DNA of 64,000 nucleotides, from contig CAIXJC010000042.1 in the NCBI GenBank assembly GCA_903919715.1, forward strand, positions 1 through 64,000. The letters are read 5' to 3'. Made by a program: the position numbers and the translations under genes. A model generated the notes under the pieces. It was not told where the DNA came from and searched no databases. It was given only the letters and a program-made list of their open reading frames with translations. Below, piece after piece: positions 53,547 to 62,464 of the stretch. The stretch is from an uncultured bacterium. Lineage in GTDB: Bacteria; Planctomycetota; Phycisphaerae; Phycisphaerales; SM1A02. Numbering within the stretch: position 1 is the stretch's first letter; each line of letters opens with the position of its first letter.

Positions 53547-55505
53547 TTGCCAGTGTTGACACAACACCCGTTCAATCTGTTTGTTTTTTCTTTGATCTGC
53601 TGCCTGACGAATTCGTTCGCGGTCGCCAAAGCCATGGCAGAAGAACCGTGCGACGTTGTCCGCAATGTCATTGCAGCGAATTGCATTCAATGTCATGCGG
53701 GCCAAGGCCCTGGACCCTTTCCACTCGTGACAGATGGCGACCTCGTACGACATGGCCCAACGATGGTGGCCGCTGTCGAATCTGGATTGATGCCGCCGTG
53801 GCTTCCCACTGGAGCACGCGGCGTTTTTCGCGATGACTGCAGACTGAGCCCCAGCGAGATTGCCGCATTTTCGCAGTGGAAAACGATGGGCTTTCCACTT
53901 GGAATCCCAGCGAAGAAAAATGCGGATGCCGCGGCAGTTGTGTCGGTGATTGCTTCGCCGATCTCAATCGATGTCGCTCGCGATTGGATTCCAAGCCCTG
54001 AAGATCCCGAAGCACTTCGCTCTTTCGCCACAGCGCTTCAGAACACAATACCGCTTCGCGTTCGAGGATGGAAAGTGATCCGCGACACGCCGACGCTTGT
54101 GGTGCGATACAACCTGCTCCTGTGCGATGGACCCGAAGCGATCGCACTTGATCAGTCCGATCCTGGCCCCGGTTTTTTTGGGAATGGAGATCGTCAAAAC
54201 AAAACGAGTGGTGCCAGTGGCGCAATCGGCATTGATGGAACCTTCCAACTTCCCGAAGGATTTGCATTCGCCGTCCCCATCAACGCTGCGCTCGTCGCCG
54301 AAGCGCTCTCGAGCGGTCGCGGACGACCAGAATCTGCAGGGGCAGTATTCCAAGCAATACCAGCAGCATCAAACGACCGCGTTGTCCAAAGTTTTCCCGT
54401 CATCCCTGATCGAAGCGCGCCTGCCCTGCGATCCAATCAACTCGTCTCGGTAACCACCGAACCATTAAGCGCACCGCTTGATCTCGTTGGCGTTGTGATT
54501 CGCCCCGACATGCGCGCAAGGAGCATCATGCTCCATGTCATTTCAGAATCAGGTACGGAGTCATCATTGATTGACATCCCCCGCTACTTGCCAAGCCTCG
54601 ACCGCGGATATGTACTTCAAAAACCGTTGACGCTTCAGGTGGGCGACCGCATTCGATTCGTCGTGCGGTACGACGATGATCCGAGGGCTCGCCGCTCAGC
54701 GCCCGTCGCAGTCCTCTTGGTTTCACAACCGCTTGCAGATGATCATGCACCTATCTCTGAAAGAGAGACGATCGCTGCTCATTTGAGTTTCACCCTCGGT
54801 GTTGCGGCGAAAGATCTTGGGATCGACTTGCTCTCAAGTGGACCTGACTGCCAATACCTCTTGGGGAAAACAGAGATCACGCAGCGACAGTTCATGGCAG
54901 TCCTCAAACGCAATCCGTCGGCATTCTCACAGACCCAACCGAATCTCGACCGTCCTGCGGATTCGATCACATGGTTTGATGCTGCGGAGTTCTGCAATGC
55001 GCTTTCACATATCGAAGGACTGCCGCCTCGATACATACTGCATGGAATCGAACGTGAATCGGATGGATGCATCACGAGCGCACGTGTTGAAATCACGACG
55101 AGTCACGGATACCGATTGCCACGCGAATCCGAATGGCTTCGAACTGCGTGTTCAGACAAGTCGAAATCTCCTGATGAACATGGAGATGCGGTAGTTCTGG
55201 AAACAACGGCATGGTTGAGTCCGTGGGCAAACAATATTTCCCACCCAGTTGCGACAAAAGCACCGAATGCTTCTGGCTTTTATGACCTCGTTGGCAACGT
55301 TTGGGAATGGTGCGAGGACGCATGGATCGACTCAGAGAGTCGCGGACCAACGGCTCGTGTTGTGCGAGGCGGTGCGTGGTGCGATGGAATCGCCGCAGCG
55401 AACTGCGAATTCCGAAGCGGCATTGCGGCTGGAACTCGAAACTCGCCATTTGGATTTCGAATTGCGGTCGACACACCTGCATCGACGTCGACTCCGCAGC
55501 CATAA
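53547..55505 (+). CDS. Fusion of cytochrome c/monooxygenase-like module and formylglycine-generating-enzyme (FGE)-like domain
   Basis: A 652-residue protein. After an N-terminal export segment, CIQCHAGQGPGPFPL is a single heme-c-like CxxCH site, followed by MPPWLPTG and SPSEIAAFSQWKTMGFP, blocks found at the front of planctomycete copper-ascorbate-type monooxygenases. The central 300 residues are beta-rich and may be the remaining copper-type domain. The C-terminal 220 residues are FGE/sulfatase-modifying-factor-like: KTEITQRQFMAVLKRNPSAF, ITWFDAAEFCNAL, GYRLPRESEW, LVGNVWEWCEDAW, RVVRGGAWCD and SPFGFRIAV. Starts TTG 53547 or GTG 53553 are both possible. It lies 21 bases after the YHYH gene; a shared copper role is speculative. 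Confidence 0.75.
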   Translation: MPVLTQHPFNLFVFSLICCLTNSFAVAKAMAEEPCDVVRNVIAANCIQCHAGQGPGPFPLVTDGDLVRHGPTMVAAVESGLMPPWLPTGARGVFRDDCRLSPSEIAAFSQWKTMGFPLGIPAKKNADAAAVVSVIASPISIDVARDWIPSPEDPEALRSFATALQNTIPLRVRGWKVIRDTPTLVVRYNLLLCDGPEAIALDQSDPGPGFFGNGDRQNKTSGASGAIGIDGTFQLPEGFAFAVPINAALVAEALSSGRGRPESAGAVFQAIPAASNDRVVQSFPVIPDRSAPALRSNQLVSVTTEPLSAPLDLVGVVIRPDMRARSIMLHVISESGTESSLIDIPRYLPSLDRGYVLQKPLTLQVGDRIRFVVRYDDDPRARRSAPVAVLLVSQPLADDHAPISERETIAAHLSFTLGVAAKDLGIDLLSSGPDCQYLLGKTEITQRQFMAVLKRNPSAFSQTQPNLDRPADSITWFDAAEFCNALSHIEGLPPRYILHGIERESDGCITSARVEITTSHGYRLPRESEWLRTACSDKSKSPDEHGDAVVLETTAWLSPWANNISHPVATKAPNASGFYDLVGNVWEWCEDAWIDSESRGPTARVVRGGAWCDGIAAANCEFRSGIAAGTRNSPFGFRIAVDTPASTSTPQP

Positions 55506-56556: not shown

Positions 56557-56913
56557 ATGACGACAAACGAATCAGCACTCACGGTCGGCGAAAGTCAACG
56601 CGATGGAATCTGCGTCATTTCGATCGACGGTCGCCTCGATTCTCAAACGACAACGGGAGCGCAAAGTGTCTTCACTGAAGCAGCAAAGACGCACCCACGC
56701 ATTCTCCTTGATTGCGCTGGGACAACATTTCTCAGCAGTTCTGGATTGCGTGCGATCGTCATGACCCACCGATCAGCGTGCGACAACGGCGGACGGATCG
56801 CCGTGCATGTACCAAGCCCAGAAATCATGAAGACGATTCACATTTCTGGAATCCAGAAGATGGTTGCGATCCACTCCAACATGGCAGACGCGATTGCTGC
56901 ATTGAAGGCATGA
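56557..56913 (+). CDS. STAS-domain anti-sigma factor antagonist-like protein
   Basis: This 118-residue protein of the SpoIIAA/RsbV fold has ICVISIDGRLDSQTTTGAQ (first strand-helix), ILLDCAGTTFLSSSGLRAIVM with the phosphorylatable serine in FLSSSGL, and IHISGIQKMVAIH near the end, typical of STAS antagonists. It would bind and release an anti-sigma kinase when unphosphorylated, or act as a STAS sensor. No kinase or sigma gene is adjacent; the sigma factor at 48791 is eight kilobases away. Confidence 0.85.
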   Translation: MTTNESALTVGESQRDGICVISIDGRLDSQTTTGAQSVFTEAAKTHPRILLDCAGTTFLSSSGLRAIVMTHRSACDNGGRIAVHVPSPEIMKTIHISGIQKMVAIHSNMADAIAALKA

Positions 56914-57441: not shown

Positions 57442-58047
57442 TCAGAATCCGATCGCGTTCTTTTCTCCCTGCTTCGTGATGGTCTTTTCACCTTCCCAAA
57501 CCAATCGGCCAGTCGCTGTGTTGGCCAAGGACATTTGAAAAATGTACGAAACCTGCTTCGTACTGCCTGCAGAAGTTGAGTTCTCCAAGATCTTTGCCGA
57601 GATGGTGAAGTCGGGAAGATCAACTGGAGTCTGCGACTGTCCCGCTAAAAAGCGTTTCGCCTCATAGGTCTCTTTCGCCATTGGATCCTCCACCTTGCCG
57701 CCAAGGCCGACGGCCTGCGTGACCTGGACTTTGCCAGTTTGCAGAAGTGAAATCCTGATTTTCTTCATCAACTGATCCGTGTCGAACTGATCGCTTGTGT
57801 CGTTTGTGACTCGAGAAATCGAAAGAGCAGCAGGCTGCCGTGATGCTTGCAAAAGCACGCCACTCTCAACCATGCTGGCTACAAGCGCTTCGCTCGCCTT
57901 TTCGAAATCTTGGATATTGACCTTGTTCATGCTGACAACAAGATCGGTTCCCTTGGAGTCGACGTATTGCGTGGGACGACAACCTTGTGTCACGAAGCAC
58001 GCAGAAAGTGCGAAGGTTGCGACGGCCATGTTTGTTTTATGTTTCAT
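57442..58047 (-). CDS. LpoB-like lipoprotein (penicillin-binding protein activator family)
   Basis: A 201-residue lipoprotein. The signal ends CFVTQGC with the lipidated Cys. The domain shows DLVVSMNKVNIQDFEKASEALVASMV, SISRVTNDTSDQFDTDQLMKKIRISLL and SYIFQMSLANTATGRLVWEGEKTITKQG, matching the LpoB/PenA-activator fold, which in Enterobacteria stimulates the bifunctional PBP1b. It is the last gene of a four-gene minus-strand operon; the start is set by GGAG seven bases upstream and the signal peptide. Whether a PBP1b-type target exists in this organism is unknown. Confidence 0.75.
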   Translation of the reverse strand: MKHKTNMAVATFALSACFVTQGCRPTQYVDSKGTDLVVSMNKVNIQDFEKASEALVASMVESGVLLQASRQPAALSISRVTNDTSDQFDTDQLMKKIRISLLQTGKVQVTQAVGLGGKVEDPMAKETYEAKRFLAGQSQTPVDLPDFTISAKILENSTSAGSTKQVSYIFQMSLANTATGRLVWEGEKTITKQGEKNAIGF

Positions 58048-58076
58048 TTTAAATCTCCAAAAGGAAGTCAGGGCGA

Positions 58077-58547
58077 TCACGGTGCGCTGGAGTACCAAGG
58101 ATAGTTCGTGTCCGAGATCTGAAGGATCCAGTCAGAAACGGCTGGACTCGGCGCGATTGCTCCAATGATGATCGTTTGTTGAGGCAGGATCATCACGCTC
58201 TCCCAAGCATCCATACCTGCGACTTTCATACCGTTCTTGTCGAACCATTCAAACTTGTATGAAAAACGCTGCTGTTGCGCCTGCGAGGAAAAGATCGACG
58301 CTTGCACTTTCTTCGTATCTCCATTCACGACGCTCTCGCGTGCGTCAACAACGCTCGCCTTTGATTCAAGCCACCAATTCGGCGCACTCTGCGAAACGCC
58401 AGAAATAGCACCATCGGTCGCACGATTCGGACGGACCGTATTCGTCAGGTTGCAACCGCCGAGCACGCTCAGCAGACCGAGCGCAATCACGATCATCATT
58501 GGACTGCGGCGAATGTGCGTCAGGGAAATATTTCGTTTCATGTTCAT
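58077..58547 (-). CDS. YcfL-like (DUF1425) lipoprotein
   Basis: This 156-residue lipoprotein has the signal IVIALGLLSVLGGC. The mature immunoglobulin-like domain has SYKFEWFDKNGMKVAGMDAWESVMILPQQTIIIGAIAPSPAVSDWILQI, the standard YcfL block sequence. In E. coli ycfL lies beside lpoB, and here the same pairing recurs, which supports both names. It overlaps the preceding gene by four bases. Confidence 0.75.
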   Translation of the reverse strand: MNMKRNISLTHIRRSPMMIVIALGLLSVLGGCNLTNTVRPNRATDGAISGVSQSAPNWWLESKASVVDARESVVNGDTKKVQASIFSSQAQQQRFSYKFEWFDKNGMKVAGMDAWESVMILPQQTIIIGAIAPSPAVSDWILQISDTNYPWYSSAP

Positions 58548-59983
58548 TGTCGATGTATCCCAAGGAGGTGAGCGTTCGGCGCTGTCCCCGCCGCAACCGA
58601 CTTAATGTAGACCACCGAGACGGGTTCGGCGCCAGGGGTGAAAGGCCCGACTTTTCTGCCATCTGAGAGGGTCACCGTGACTTCGCCAGGAGTTTCTGGA
58701 AGAATCAGGCGGCCGTAATAAAACGCTTTGGGCAATGTGGTCCATGTTCGCAGATCCGCACTATTCATCGCGACCTGATAAACGACTCCAGCAACCATAC
58801 CCCAATCCCCCGCCGCTTCCTTCATGCCGTACGTCGCTGCAGCTTTGGTCGCGCTCGAGATCAGTGTTGCGATGATGATGCTCCCAAGTCGATTCTGAAA
58901 ATCCTGTGTGACTACAGCATCCATATCAGTCAACAATTTTGATTCGCACGATTCATTTGCATGAGTCGCCGTGAAACCCGTCACTGCATTTTCGTGATAA
59001 ACGAGCGCAGGAAATGCTGCGCCAACATAAGGAACATCGCGCAGAAAAATGGGGATATCAATGCGCACCTCGCGTCGACTCGCTGCCAATCCGCTCTCCA
59101 ACACGATGTAACACACGCGTGCGCCTGGCTTGCCACTCGCCACGTCCTCAGCCACTTGAGCATCTGCGAGCGCGGGCACCCCGTTGGTCTCTCCCAGCAT
59201 TCCAGCAACGCGGCTGAAGCATTGACGCGCCTGTTCGAAATCGCTCGGCTCGCCTCGTGCGAGATAGAACACGCCGCGCATCCAAGTCGCCGCAGGGATT
59301 TCGTAATCCGAATACCCTTGGAATCGACTCATCGGACCATAGAGTTCCTTCATTTGCGCCTGAAACTCTGGACTCTTCAGCGTCTTGTCTGGGTCGTATC
59401 CAGAAGAGCTCTTTGAATTCTGTGCCCGCCATGCTTGATTCTCATCGTCGATTCGCTTGCGCTCCTTCGCGACCGCATCTTCCTGCCAATTTCGCATACG
59501 AACGAATTCAACTCCAGCCTTCCCCACCTCATTGGTATCGAGATAGTTCAGCGCCTGATAAGTGCTCGACATGATGCGGTCGTAAGTTGTTCCGCGGTAT
59601 GTTCGAACGAGCTGATTTGTGAATGCGGCTGCAACTTCTTCAGTGACCTTCGTCTCTGCTTCGCCGTTGTAGTACGGCGACATTCGATCCCATGCTTCGT
59701 TGAAGGCGGCGATGCTGGTTCCCGTCTGACCGGCCGCACGGCTGACGGATCCTTCTTCGAGATCGAAGATCACGGCATCCACATCGTCGCTGCGATACTT
59801 CTCCCACACTGGCAACATCGCGGATGCGGCCTTAGAAAAGTCTCCGGCGTTATACGCAACGGTTACCTCTTGCAGCCGATTGTTATGGCTGCAGCCAAAC
59901 AACAGCGCAGTCAAGATTGCTGCGGCTGAAAAAAACAAAACTCGGCAACTTCGCATCGTCACGATTATCTGGAGTCCCGGCAT
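58544..59983 (-). CDS. COG3014-like envelope lipoprotein
   Basis: A 479-residue protein. The signal segment ends LTALLFGC with a lipobox Cys. A TPR-like N-terminal part (VTVAYNAGDFSKAASAMLPVWEKYR; FDLEEGSVSRAAGQTGTSIAAFNEA) is followed by the conserved GTTYDRIMSSTYQALNYL and VEFVRMRNWQEDAVAKER blocks and by a C-terminal beta domain. In Shewanella and Vibrio-type clusters this family precedes YcfL and LpoB, and the order here is the same. Start 59983 follows TAAGGATCG eight bases after the upstream stop; 59956 is an alternative. Confidence 0.7.
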   Translation of the reverse strand: MPGLQIIVTMRSCRVLFFSAAAILTALLFGCSHNNRLQEVTVAYNAGDFSKAASAMLPVWEKYRSDDVDAVIFDLEEGSVSRAAGQTGTSIAAFNEAWDRMSPYYNGEAETKVTEEVAAAFTNQLVRTYRGTTYDRIMSSTYQALNYLDTNEVGKAGVEFVRMRNWQEDAVAKERKRIDDENQAWRAQNSKSSSGYDPDKTLKSPEFQAQMKELYGPMSRFQGYSDYEIPAATWMRGVFYLARGEPSDFEQARQCFSRVAGMLGETNGVPALADAQVAEDVASGKPGARVCYIVLESGLAASRREVRIDIPIFLRDVPYVGAAFPALVYHENAVTGFTATHANESCESKLLTDMDAVVTQDFQNRLGSIIIATLISSATKAAATYGMKEAAGDWGMVAGVVYQVAMNSADLRTWTTLPKAFYYGRLILPETPGEVTVTLSDGRKVGPFTPGAEPVSVVYIKSVAAGTAPNAHLLGIHRQ

Positions 59984-59991
59984 TTCGATCC

Positions 59992-62355
59992 TTACGGCCT
60001 TGCGGGTACCGCAACTGGGGGTTGTTGGGGCAGAATGGTTCCGCTCGGCTGATTGATTCCAGGCTGATTGATTCCAGGCTGATTCCCCCACGGTGCGCTC
60101 GGCCACCAACTTGGAACGAGATATGTCGGTGCCTGATTTGTATTGATGTTTGTCGAATTCTGAATGTCAAGCACCATCCGCGAATTTCGGATGAACTCCG
60201 CCGTCGCTCGAATGCGGTCCACATCTGCGTCAACCAATTGCTGCCGCTGAGTGAGGGTCTGCATGAACTCTAACTGACTTCGCCAGCGAATCAGTCCTTC
60301 ATCGGTCAGTTGCAAAGGAACATTCAAACTCATTCCAGGACGCACATTGATCGTTCGGCTCCAAGGACGAAAACCTTCGCAGGTGATGCTGACCTTGTGT
60401 AGCCCAGGAAAGACATTCAACATTTCAGGTGAATTGCCAACGACAAGACCGTCCATTTCGATCGCAGCATTCGTCGGCAGCAGATTCCAACTGACCCCAC
60501 TGACCACATATCGACCCGTCGCCGCATCCGTCACAACGCCGGGGATGATCATGTCTTGCATCGTGCACACAATGCGAAATGGAACCTCAACTGGCAGCGT
60601 GTTTGGACTTGTGACCGTCGCTTCAGCACACCGCTTTCCAACGCTTTCGCCGATTGATTGAGCGCAGCGGCGAATGACCACATCGATGAGATCGCGCTCC
60701 TGTTTCAGGTTGGGAGACTGGCGAACTTTTTCGGTTGCGGTCACGGAATCACTCGTAATGACCTGACCTTGAACACGACCGAGCAAGCGATATGTGACAT
60801 CCATCTGAGCGGATCGAATATCCGTCGTGGCTCCATACGCATCGGTCTGCTGACGATCATTGATGTATGCAGTAATCGACGCGATCAAGATGTAATCCAC
60901 TCCCATCTGCTGCGCCAATCGAAGCGCCGATGTCTCGTCGGACAAAATGCGATCGAGATCCTTCTGGGGATCGACGGCCGTTCCGACATTCGCTCCTGCT
61001 GTTGCAAAGCGAGCGACCGCATTGAGCGTGTCTTCACGACTGATCGTCGTAAAGCAAAACTTGTCGACTTGCGCAGCGATGTAGTCCTCCAAGACCATCA
61101 CCTTCTCGGCCGAAACATCCGCCGGCCGATTTTTGACAAAGATCGCGGCGGAGTAACGCTGCGGAACAATCGGAACTACTCCGCTGCCAACTGCGCCGCT
61201 CGTCGCCGAAGGCGCTGTCACCCCAGCTGGACTCGCAGCTGGATTCGCAGCTGGACTCGCAGCTGGATTCGCAGGCGCTGCAGGAACCGACGGCGGTACC
61301 TGTGGCGCCGTGCGTGGATCGCCAACGGCTCCTGGTGCTGCCGACGAGGGACATGCTGTCTTGGTTGATCGCCGCACGATGCATCCTGTTGCTACGCCGA
61401 AGTCATCGCCGCAGACTCCACCCCGTGCAACTCGCGCATCAGCCACTTGAATTTGCAACCATCCAACAGGAACCTCTTCTGCACCAAGCGACTCTCCAGT
61501 GTCGGGATCGGTCAAGGCTTGACCAAGTGCGAACACTTGCCAAATCTGGCCCACAGTAACCCCTGCCCCAGCACCACGACTGATTGTCGCCATGCGATCC
61601 GTGATCGCGAGAATCTTCGCAGGCATCAGTCGATCGACGATGTCGCGCGCAACCTGCTCACTCGTCGTTCGTGCGATATCCAAGATCATCGAATCAGTGA
61701 AACGACCTCCTTGCACTGTTGAATTTATCGGGTCATTGATGATCTTCTGGTCGTCGTAACTTGAATTGACACTTTCGACTAACCGTCCACTCGTTGTTTC
61801 ATACACCTTGGTCACGAGTGCCAATTTGACGATTCGTCGGGTCAGTTTCTGACCGAGTCCCTCGAAGACACCAGTCTCGATGTAATCCTGAAAATCTGCG
61901 ATTTGTGGAACAACGATCCAGCGAATTCCCTTGAGCATAAAACTTCGTGCTGCTTGGGGATCCATACCGTTCACATTTCCTCCAGCGGCAAAGTCTTGCT
62001 CGCGCAGAATCTGTGGCCAATCACTACGGGCGATCACATCGAACTTTGCAGTTGCGCCGAATGCTGCTGTGAGTTGACCGTCCAATGATTGCTGAATCCG
62101 ATCGAGTTCGATGACTTGATCCGCTCCGCGCGCTGCGAGAGTGTTCTTCAGTGCGGGAAGGACATCAACTGCTCCAATTCCTAAGGCGACTCTCCCAGAT
62201 GCGCCAGCAGGTGGCACGGTATTGCCCGGCGGCGCCTGCGCAGTAGCGATCCCAGTGATCGCAAGCACCGAAAGCAAAACAGTTCGAAGCGTCCAGCGAC
62301 TTGCGCCGCACCGTAAAAAAAATGCCTGAGCGGATTGGGTTGCTGCATTCATCAT
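59992..62355 (-). CDS. CsgG-like protein with PEGA domain, first gene of the lipoprotein operon
   Basis: This 787-residue secreted protein starts at 62355, after an AAGGA site, and carries the signal WTLRTVLLSVLAITGIATA. The N-terminal 300 residues follow a CsgG/curli-assembly-like plan (DVIARSDWPQILREQDF, IRWIVVPQIADFQDY, LVTKVYETTSGRLVES). The linker (about 330-410) is Ala/Pro-rich with NPAASPA repeats. A second similar domain (DRILSDETSALRLAQQMGVDYILIASI) is followed by a PEGA domain (AAIEMDGLVVGNSPEMLNVFPGLHKVSITCEGF). It ends in a Gln/Pro/Asn tail with GINQP repeats. It may organise surface-protein export or an outer-membrane complex with the lipoproteins downstream. Confidence 0.7.
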   Translation of the reverse strand: MMNAATQSAQAFFLRCGASRWTLRTVLLSVLAITGIATAQAPPGNTVPPAGASGRVALGIGAVDVLPALKNTLAARGADQVIELDRIQQSLDGQLTAAFGATAKFDVIARSDWPQILREQDFAAGGNVNGMDPQAARSFMLKGIRWIVVPQIADFQDYIETGVFEGLGQKLTRRIVKLALVTKVYETTSGRLVESVNSSYDDQKIINDPINSTVQGGRFTDSMILDIARTTSEQVARDIVDRLMPAKILAITDRMATISRGAGAGVTVGQIWQVFALGQALTDPDTGESLGAEEVPVGWLQIQVADARVARGGVCGDDFGVATGCIVRRSTKTACPSSAAPGAVGDPRTAPQVPPSVPAAPANPAASPAANPAASPAGVTAPSATSGAVGSGVVPIVPQRYSAAIFVKNRPADVSAEKVMVLEDYIAAQVDKFCFTTISREDTLNAVARFATAGANVGTAVDPQKDLDRILSDETSALRLAQQMGVDYILIASITAYINDRQQTDAYGATTDIRSAQMDVTYRLLGRVQGQVITSDSVTATEKVRQSPNLKQERDLIDVVIRRCAQSIGESVGKRCAEATVTSPNTLPVEVPFRIVCTMQDMIIPGVVTDAATGRYVVSGVSWNLLPTNAAIEMDGLVVGNSPEMLNVFPGLHKVSITCEGFRPWSRTINVRPGMSLNVPLQLTDEGLIRWRSQLEFMQTLTQRQQLVDADVDRIRATAEFIRNSRMVLDIQNSTNINTNQAPTYLVPSWWPSAPWGNQPGINQPGINQPSGTILPQQPPVAVPARP

Positions 62356-62464
62356 GCTTAATTCCTTATTGCGTTGCATAGATCCGAAATGGGTGGAACG
62401 GGGGACGCATCATTCATCCCCCGAACCACACCCATCGTAGACCATCCATGCGCACTCTTGCGAG

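What the first reader, a model, noticed from the sequence alone, without database searches (positions are those of the whole stretch)
57442..62355. CsgG/PEGA - COG3014 - YcfL - LpoB operon in a planctomycete
This order is known from gamma-proteobacteria, where LpoB activates PBP1b. Many planctomycetes are reported to lack class A penicillin-binding proteins, so the target of an LpoB-like protein here is unclear. The operon may point to another envelope machine.
Basis: partly seen in the sequence, partly recalled or inferred. Interest (0 to 1): 0.52.

Follow-up and report, generated by a model that had tools for sequence, protein, structure and literature searches.

The report
LpoB operon without its known target
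A planctomycete carries a set of outer-membrane lipoprotein genes related to a known switch of a cell-wall enzyme, but that enzyme is absent here, and relatives suggest the set is a self-contained envelope module that moves between bacteria as a unit.

Summary
The four-gene operon is real. CsgG/PEGA, a TPR lipoprotein ("COG3014"), YcfL/DUF1425 and LpoB run head to tail on the minus strand, 62355 to 57442. The own genome (94% complete) has no class A transglycosylase and no UB2H; it has five Mur-ligase hits, two SEDS proteins and two class B PBPs. Over 294 planctomycete genomes LpoB tracks the TPR protein (148 of 175 LpoB genomes; 94 of 96 with strong LpoB) and is independent of class A PBPs (odds ratio 1.1, p 0.87). 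Twenty class A PBPs examined from LpoB-bearing genomes are PBP1C-like, without UB2H. The same three-gene core occurs in Campylobacter (cj0089-cj0091), one Helicobacter, Aeromonas and Azospirillum; trees of both core genes disagree with taxonomy in similar ways, as if the pair moved together. The lipid-to-domain tether is 24 residues here against 59 in E. coli. Best reading: a self-contained outer-membrane lipoprotein module in which LpoB works with the TPR protein, not with PBP1b; PBP1b activation looks like a later recruitment. Its biochemical output is not shown. The kind of system is known; the PBP1b-free setting and the CsgG/PEGA partner make a variant.

The parts
59992..62355 (-). CsgG/PEGA periplasmic protein, with a signal peptide but no lipobox (by eye); two CsgG-like halves followed by PEGA
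   Evidence: Pfam CsgG at residues 92-205 of the 795-aa ORF (window 61765-62106) and PEGA at residues 635-692 (60304-60477). ATG at 62355 with AAGGAA upstream; an in-frame ATG also at 62379. In family f48 the two halves are separate genes in the reverse order.
60640..61160 (-). second CsgG-like half (approximate limits, by eye)
   Evidence: Aligns with the PEGA-bearing separate gene of L066, L067 and L068; one search counts two CsgG stretches in the protein.
58544..59956 (-). TPR lipoprotein (COG3014 by recall, homologue of Cj0089), 470 aa
   Evidence: Lipobox Cys22 nearly invariant in 52 aligned rows. AlphaFold2 model pLDDT 89.8, pTM 0.89.
59138..59887 (-). TPR helical domain, about residues 24-273
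   Evidence: Model helices 24-273; profile match to designed TPRs; TPR folds fill the structure list.
58547..59134 (-). C-terminal beta-sandwich split by a 53-residue helix, with GxxP and ADxRxWxTLP motifs
   Evidence: Invariant D and R, nearly invariant G, P, L, P in 52 rows; model pLDDT 89.5; no Foldseek match better than E 0.4.
58077..58547 (-). YcfL/DUF1425 lipoprotein
   Evidence: PF07233 E 1.3e-16; lipobox Cys invariant in 32 rows; start overlaps the stop of the TPR gene as ATGA; profile finds PDB 3o0l and 4gio.
57442..58047 (-). LpoB-family lipoprotein with a 24-residue tether
   Evidence: PF13036 E 9.1e-25; TIGR02722 89.2 bits, below its 110.55 cut-off; profile finds the LpoB solved structures at 1e-10; tether length.

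Best explanation
A self-contained outer-membrane lipoprotein module. Three lipoproteins (the TPR scaffold, YcfL and a short-tethered LpoB) sit at the periplasmic face of the outer membrane, here with a secreted CsgG-like/PEGA protein. The direct partner of LpoB is most likely the TPR lipoprotein of its own operon, not a class A PBP. The module probably couples outer-membrane upkeep to peptidoglycan growth or remodelling. The only synthases found here are SEDS plus class B PBPs, so any effect on synthesis would have to act on those. Shown: the operon, absence of the known target, phylum-wide linkage, similar non-taxonomic trees, short tether, domain anatomy. Inferred: physical complex, membrane location, output. 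The E. coli LpoB-PBP1b pairing would then be a later recruitment.
For: Own genome: 0 hits to the class A transglycosylase, with 10 of 14 control genomes ringing; 2 class B PBPs; 2 SEDS, one beside a class B PBP on C78; 5 Mur-ligase hits. Linkage: 57 of 60 chosen LpoB regions hold the TPR gene, 57 of 57 on the same strand within 985 nt; the C-terminal domain alone gives the same 57. The 3 misses: L046, where LpoB is 1.3 kb from a contig end; L072, a 4.4-kb contig; L071, a second LpoB copy of a genome (G065) whose other copy on C610 does have the TPR gene beside it. Profile over 294 genomes: both 148, LpoB only 27, TPR gene only 11, neither 108, odds ratio 54; strong LpoB 94 of 96. Class A PBP: 26 of 175 LpoB genomes against 16 of 119 others, p 0.87. 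Class A PBPs taken from 20 of 26 LpoB-bearing genomes: all match PBP1C and none UB2H. Core conserved in Campylobacter, Helicobacter sp., Aeromonas, Azospirillum. Both trees reject planctomycete monophyly and own-class monophyly. Tether: window 24, median 24 in 45 of 60 planctomycete rows where it could be measured, Campylobacter 27, Aeromonas 24, E. coli 59.
Against: No interaction, localisation or phenotype was measured here. Genomes are related, so the Fisher values overstate independence. The 60 regions were chosen for strong LpoB hits and contig length. Aeromonas has both the TPR gene with a short-tethered LpoB and a UB2H protein, so a short tether does not rule out PBP1b as a partner there. 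In C. jejuni Cj0089 was found in the inner-membrane fraction and Cj0091 in the outer (PMC3100323, abstract and passages), which speaks against a single outer-membrane complex. YcfL is in only 31 of 60 regions, so it is not obligatory. In 27 of 175 LpoB genomes no TPR gene was found, mostly with weak LpoB hits.
Confidence: 0.58

Rival explanations
1. LpoB here directly activates the SEDS-class B PBP synthases (RodA-PBP2 or FtsW-FtsI), replacing the missing class A PBP as target.
For: These are the only peptidoglycan polymerase/transpeptidase families found in the genome; the LpoB domain is well conserved.
Against: The LpoB tether is 24 residues against 59 in E. coli, a poor fit for reaching an inner-membrane synthase from the outer membrane (inference). 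SEDS proteins are near universal (recalled) while the module is patchy and tracks the TPR gene instead.
Confidence: 0.17
2. The module controls peptidoglycan hydrolases, as proposed for the Helicobacter homologue HP0018 with AmiA and MltD.
For: HP0018 co-immunoprecipitated MltD and, less cleanly, AmiA; deletion caused hypervesiculation and less helical cells (PMC11394524, abstract, section 3.5 and passages). Campylobacter and Helicobacter sp. homologues match the window's profile.
Against: The own genome has no Amidase_3, SLT or M23 hit, while the controls ring, so those partner families are absent; other hydrolase families were not searched. The published co-IP is one biological replicate.
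Confidence: 0.13
3. The CsgG-like/PEGA protein forms a secretion channel, with the lipoproteins as accessory parts, as in curli export.
For: CsgG Pfam match; CsgG is itself a lipoprotein channel (recalled).
Against: No lipobox in the CsgG/PEGA protein (by eye); the core occurs without it in most regions; the Pfam match is weak and covers about half the model.
Confidence: 0.06
4. A PBP1b with UB2H exists but lies in the missing 6% of this draft genome.
For: Completeness is 94.09%, 85 contigs.
Against: Class A PBPs are in 1 of 22 searched genomes of the own class and 42 of 294 of the phylum; the 20 examined from LpoB-bearing genomes carry no UB2H.
Confidence: 0.03

Closest known systems
Campylobacter jejuni cj0089-cj0090-cj0091 operon (and Helicobacter HP0018/HP1457)
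   Same: Same three proteins in the same order, each matched by the planctomycete profiles: TPR lipoprotein 8e-27, YcfL 8e-10, LpoB 2e-42 in L106. Short LpoB tether (27). No UB2H protein found: the two weak hits in four Campylobacterota genomes are 660-aa frames, taken as UvrB without a scan.
   Different: No CsgG/PEGA gene is described in the operon; Campylobacter is a pathogen in which Cj0091 affects adherence (PMC3100323). Class A PBPs of these genomes were not searched.
E. coli LpoB-PBP1B (UB2H) activation system
   Same: LpoB domain homologous; ycfL stands beside lpoB in both.
   Different: No class A PBP, no UB2H, tether 24 instead of 59, TPR gene present.
Aeromonas hinT-TPR gene-ycfL-lpoB-thiK operon
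   Same: Three-gene core with short-tethered LpoB.
   Different: Has a UB2H protein of 809 aa; no CsgG/PEGA gene at the locus.
CsgG / PEGA-domain envelope proteins
   Same: Pfam CsgG and PEGA matches.
   Different: Two CsgG-like halves in one protein without a lipobox; no curli genes recognised among the neighbours scanned.

Membership tests
LpoB family (PF13036) | LpoB domain above the curated cut-off | tested here: met
   87.7 bits against 22.3; profile hits 4q6z, 2mii, 4q6l
LpoB family (PF13036) | lipoprotein signal with lipobox cysteine | tested here: met
   Cys17 of the 201-aa protein, nearly invariant in 58 rows
PBP activator LpoB, equivalog TIGR02722 | score above the equivalog cut-off | tested here: not met
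   89.2 bits against 110.55
E. coli-type LpoB-PBP1B system | class A PBP in the genome | tested here: not met
   PF00912: 0 matches, 94% complete genome
E. coli-type LpoB-PBP1B system | UB2H docking domain | tested here: not met
   PF14814: 0 matches in G000
E. coli-type LpoB-PBP1B system | long disordered tether (145 A in E. coli, PMC6220978 passage) | tested here: not met
   24 residues against 59 in E. coli K-12
E. coli-type LpoB-PBP1B system | stimulation of PBP1B activity | not testable with these tools
   needs biochemistry
cj0089-cj0091-type lipoprotein operon | TPR lipoprotein with the C-terminal GxxP / ADxRxW domain | tested here: met
   A4 profile hits L106-L109, L099, L100 at 1e-25 to 1e-37
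cj0089-cj0091-type lipoprotein operon | DUF1425 and LpoB genes directly downstream, in that order | tested here: met
cj0089-cj0091-type lipoprotein operon | co-transcription | not testable with these tools
   short gaps and one overlap only
CsgG curli channel | CsgG domain | tested here: met
   31.5 bits against 20.8, about half of the model
CsgG curli channel | lipid anchor | tested here: not met
   no lipobox cysteine near the N terminus, by eye
CsgG curli channel | curli subunits and accessory genes | not tested
   the genome was not searched for CsgA/B/E/F

The most novel reading that the evidence does not exclude
LpoB did not arise as a PBP1b activator. It is an old part of a mobile outer-membrane module (TPR lipoprotein, YcfL, short-tethered LpoB) that works without class A PBPs in most planctomycetes that carry it. 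The enterobacterial lineage lost the TPR partner, lengthened the tether and recruited LpoB to UB2H. This would revise the published view that LpoB and UB2H arose together and recently in enterobacteria (PMC3060616).
Probability: 0.45. Interest if true: 0.66.

Novelty: new variant of a known kind. Interest (0 to 1): 0.5.

Why it matters
LpoB is a textbook outer-membrane switch of a cell-wall synthase, described as restricted to enterobacteria (PMC3060616, passages). Here its family is in over half of the sampled planctomycete genomes, most without any class A PBP, and nearly always beside one TPR lipoprotein. That makes its older role testable in class A PBP-free bacteria, and suggests looking for that TPR partner when the Campylobacter and Helicobacter proteins are studied.

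Tried and rejected
A missed PBP1b: searched with PF00912 and PF14814, none. UB2H-model hits in 78 of 294 planctomycete genomes looked alarming at first; three were scanned: two carry the TRCF/helicase domains of Mfd, and the third has the UvrB interaction domain as its best match; none of the listed UB2H hits shares a contig with a listed transglycosylase hit. Shared hydrolase partners with Helicobacter: Amidase_3, SLT, M23 absent. A known fold for the C-terminal domain: Foldseek best E 0.4, VIA-align best Z 7.5, rmsd 2.8, 90 aligned, which is at the level of chance arrangements; no family claimed. LpoP (6w5q) appears at Z 11.3, rmsd 2.4, 104 aligned, against the TPR part, which is common for TPR folds and not taken as kinship. 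Another conserved neighbour: clustering 411 flanking frames gave none with a constant position. Literature: LpoB with planctomycete gave 2 papers (seen as a listing only), LpoB with Planctomycetota 0, COG3014 0, DUF1425 with lipoprotein 0, LpoB with CsgG and PEGA 0.
Full report
What is there. Gaps are 35 nt, an ATGA overlap and 29 nt. Pfam supports CsgG, PEGA, DUF1425 and LpoB above their cut-offs. Three of the four proteins have a lipobox, with the cysteine invariant or nearly so in relatives. The CsgG/PEGA protein has a signal sequence without one (by eye). LpoB is below the curated equivalog cut-off of TIGR02722 (89.2 against 110.55 bits), but a planctomycete LpoB profile finds the solved structures of LpoB at 1e-10.

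The target is missing. The genome (2.90 Mb in 85 contigs, 94.09% complete) has no class A transglycosylase, no UB2H, no Amidase_3, no SLT and no M23 peptidase; each search rang in 6 to 10 of 14 control genomes. It has five Mur-ligase hits, two SEDS proteins and two transpeptidases with the class B dimerisation domain, one of them next to a SEDS gene on contig C78. So it most likely makes peptidoglycan with SEDS and class B PBPs only. Planctomyces sp. has been listed among bacteria lacking class A PBPs (PMC8406291, passages).

Linkage across the phylum. In 294 planctomycete genomes LpoB (PF13036) matches in 175, class A transglycosylase in 42 and the C-terminal domain of the TPR lipoprotein (alignment A4) in 159. 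Both LpoB and the TPR gene occur in 148; LpoB only in 27, TPR gene only in 11, neither in 108 (odds ratio 54). With LpoB at E up to 1e-10, 94 of 96 genomes have the TPR gene; in the two without, LpoB lies 717 nt from a contig start (G014) or on a 4.4-kb contig (G037). LpoB is independent of class A PBPs: 26 of 175 with against 16 of 119 without, odds ratio 1.1, p 0.87; for the strong set 14 of 96 against 28 of 198, p 1.0. Relatedness of genomes is not corrected for, and drafts are incomplete. I fetched 60 regions around LpoB hits, chosen for hit strength, contig length and family spread, not at random. 57 of 60 hold the TPR gene, all 57 on the LpoB strand within 985 nt, and 31 of 60 hold DUF1425. 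51 of the 60 lie in genomes without a class A hit, and 48 of these 51 have the TPR gene.

Class A PBPs of planctomycetes are of another kind. Of 26 genomes with both LpoB and a class A hit I took the PBP from 20. All 20 match the PBP1C model (best E 1.9e-190, against 3.6e-68 for the PBP1b model), 13 carry the BiPBP_C domain, and none matches UB2H at E 0.01. The five best class A hits of the phylum (L093-L097; only L097 is from a LpoB genome) have no UB2H either. The UB2H model did match in 78 of 294 genomes, but mostly in frames of about 1100 or 670 residues. The three I scanned all hold the UvrB interaction domain as a stronger match; two also show TRCF and helicase domains.

Wider spread. 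The TPR, YcfL and LpoB profiles find the same three-gene core in two C. jejuni records, one Campylobacter sp. and one Helicobacter sp. (L106-L109), in Azospirillum sp. TSH100 plasmid p1 (L099) and in Aeromonas caviae (L100). E. coli K-12 has only ycfL and lpoB there. In Aeromonas the order is hinT, TPR gene, ycfL, lpoB and a thiK-like frame (hinT and thiK by eye, order as). The C. jejuni operon is published as cj0089-cj0091, with an adherence and colonisation defect for cj0091 (PMC3100323, abstract and passages). The Helicobacter TPR homologue HP0018 is tied to vesiculation, cell shape and, by a one-replicate co-IP, to MltD and AmiA (PMC11394524, abstract, section 3.5 and passages). That paper also notes the LpoB homology of HP1457/Cj0091 and its synteny with the TPR gene in many enterohepatic Helicobacter species.

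History. Trees of LpoB (68 rows) and of the TPR protein (64 rows) put the window, its family relative L051, five members of family f48 of another class, two same-class members, three further planctomycetes, Azospirillum and the four Campylobacterota sequences into one group of 17 rows (99% SH-aLRT in both), while same-order members L044, L086 and L087 lie elsewhere. Aeromonas groups with two other f48 members in both trees (96% in the TPR tree; 85% and together with E. coli in the LpoB tree). Holding planctomycetes together is rejected (AU p 0.010 for the TPR protein, 0.00012 for LpoB), and so is holding the own class together (1.5e-6 and 2e-60) (E. coli and the long-branched L091 were left out of the LpoB test). 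This fits transfer of the pair as a unit; old duplication with loss is not excluded, non-planctomycete sampling is thin (6 or 7 rows), and some branches are long.

Anatomy. The TPR protein was modelled with high confidence (pLDDT 89.8, pTM 0.89): helical TPR domain, then a beta-sandwich interrupted by a 53-residue helix. The second domain carries the invariant D and R of ADxRxWxTLP and a GxxP motif. Alone it has no Foldseek match better than E 0.4 and at best Z 7.5 by VIA-align, so no fold relation is claimed. The tether from the lipobox cysteine to the first conserved aspartate of LpoB is 24 residues in the window and has a median of 24 in the 45 of 60 planctomycete rows where the simple lipobox pattern was found (range 13-93; the 93 is L072, where the pattern probably sits in a preceding domain). 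It is 24 in Aeromonas, 27 in Azospirillum, 27 to 30 in Campylobacterota and 59 in E. coli. In E. coli the disordered sequence is said to reach 145 A to meet UB2H (PMC6220978, passage). Aeromonas has a UB2H protein (809 aa, E 6.8e-28) and a short tether, so the long tether is not a simple marker of PBP1b use.

CsgG/PEGA. The window protein holds two CsgG-like halves and a PEGA domain. In f48 (L066, L067, L068) the halves are encoded by two adjacent genes in the reverse order, just upstream of the core. The window and L051 thus carry a fused form, which suggests that the halves work together. Most other regions lack it, so it is an addition to the core.

Reading. The core is best seen as an outer-membrane lipoprotein module whose inner bond is LpoB to the TPR lipoprotein. 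Its output is open; coupling the outer membrane to wall growth or remodelling is the reading I back, without direct proof. The published statement that LpoB is restricted to enterobacteria and arose with UB2H (PMC3060616, passages; made with a 100-bit cut-off) holds for strict orthologues at most, not for the family.

Noticed in passing
G000 whole genome: No Amidase_3, SLT or M23 peptidase hits in a genome that has Mur ligases, SEDS and class B PBPs: a very small or unusual set of wall hydrolases.
   Followed up: partly
L045 3940-5892: In this planctomycete a second CsgG-type protein with Glucodextran_B and Ig-like repeats lies next to lpoB.
   Followed up: no
L099 8388-10989: On an Azospirillum plasmid the core is followed by a DUF6844 protein and a frame with a weak LpoB match, in a stretch also holding glycosyltransferase and methyltransferase genes.
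   Followed up: no
L048, L052, L055, L056: Family f60 carries two tandem DUF1425 genes between the TPR gene and lpoB.
   Followed up: no
window 53547-55505: FGE-sulfatase-domain protein with a weak cytochrome match near the operon, on the opposite strand.
   Followed up: no
window 56557-56913: STAS-domain anti-sigma-factor-antagonist-like protein just beyond lpoB, on the opposite strand.
   Followed up: no
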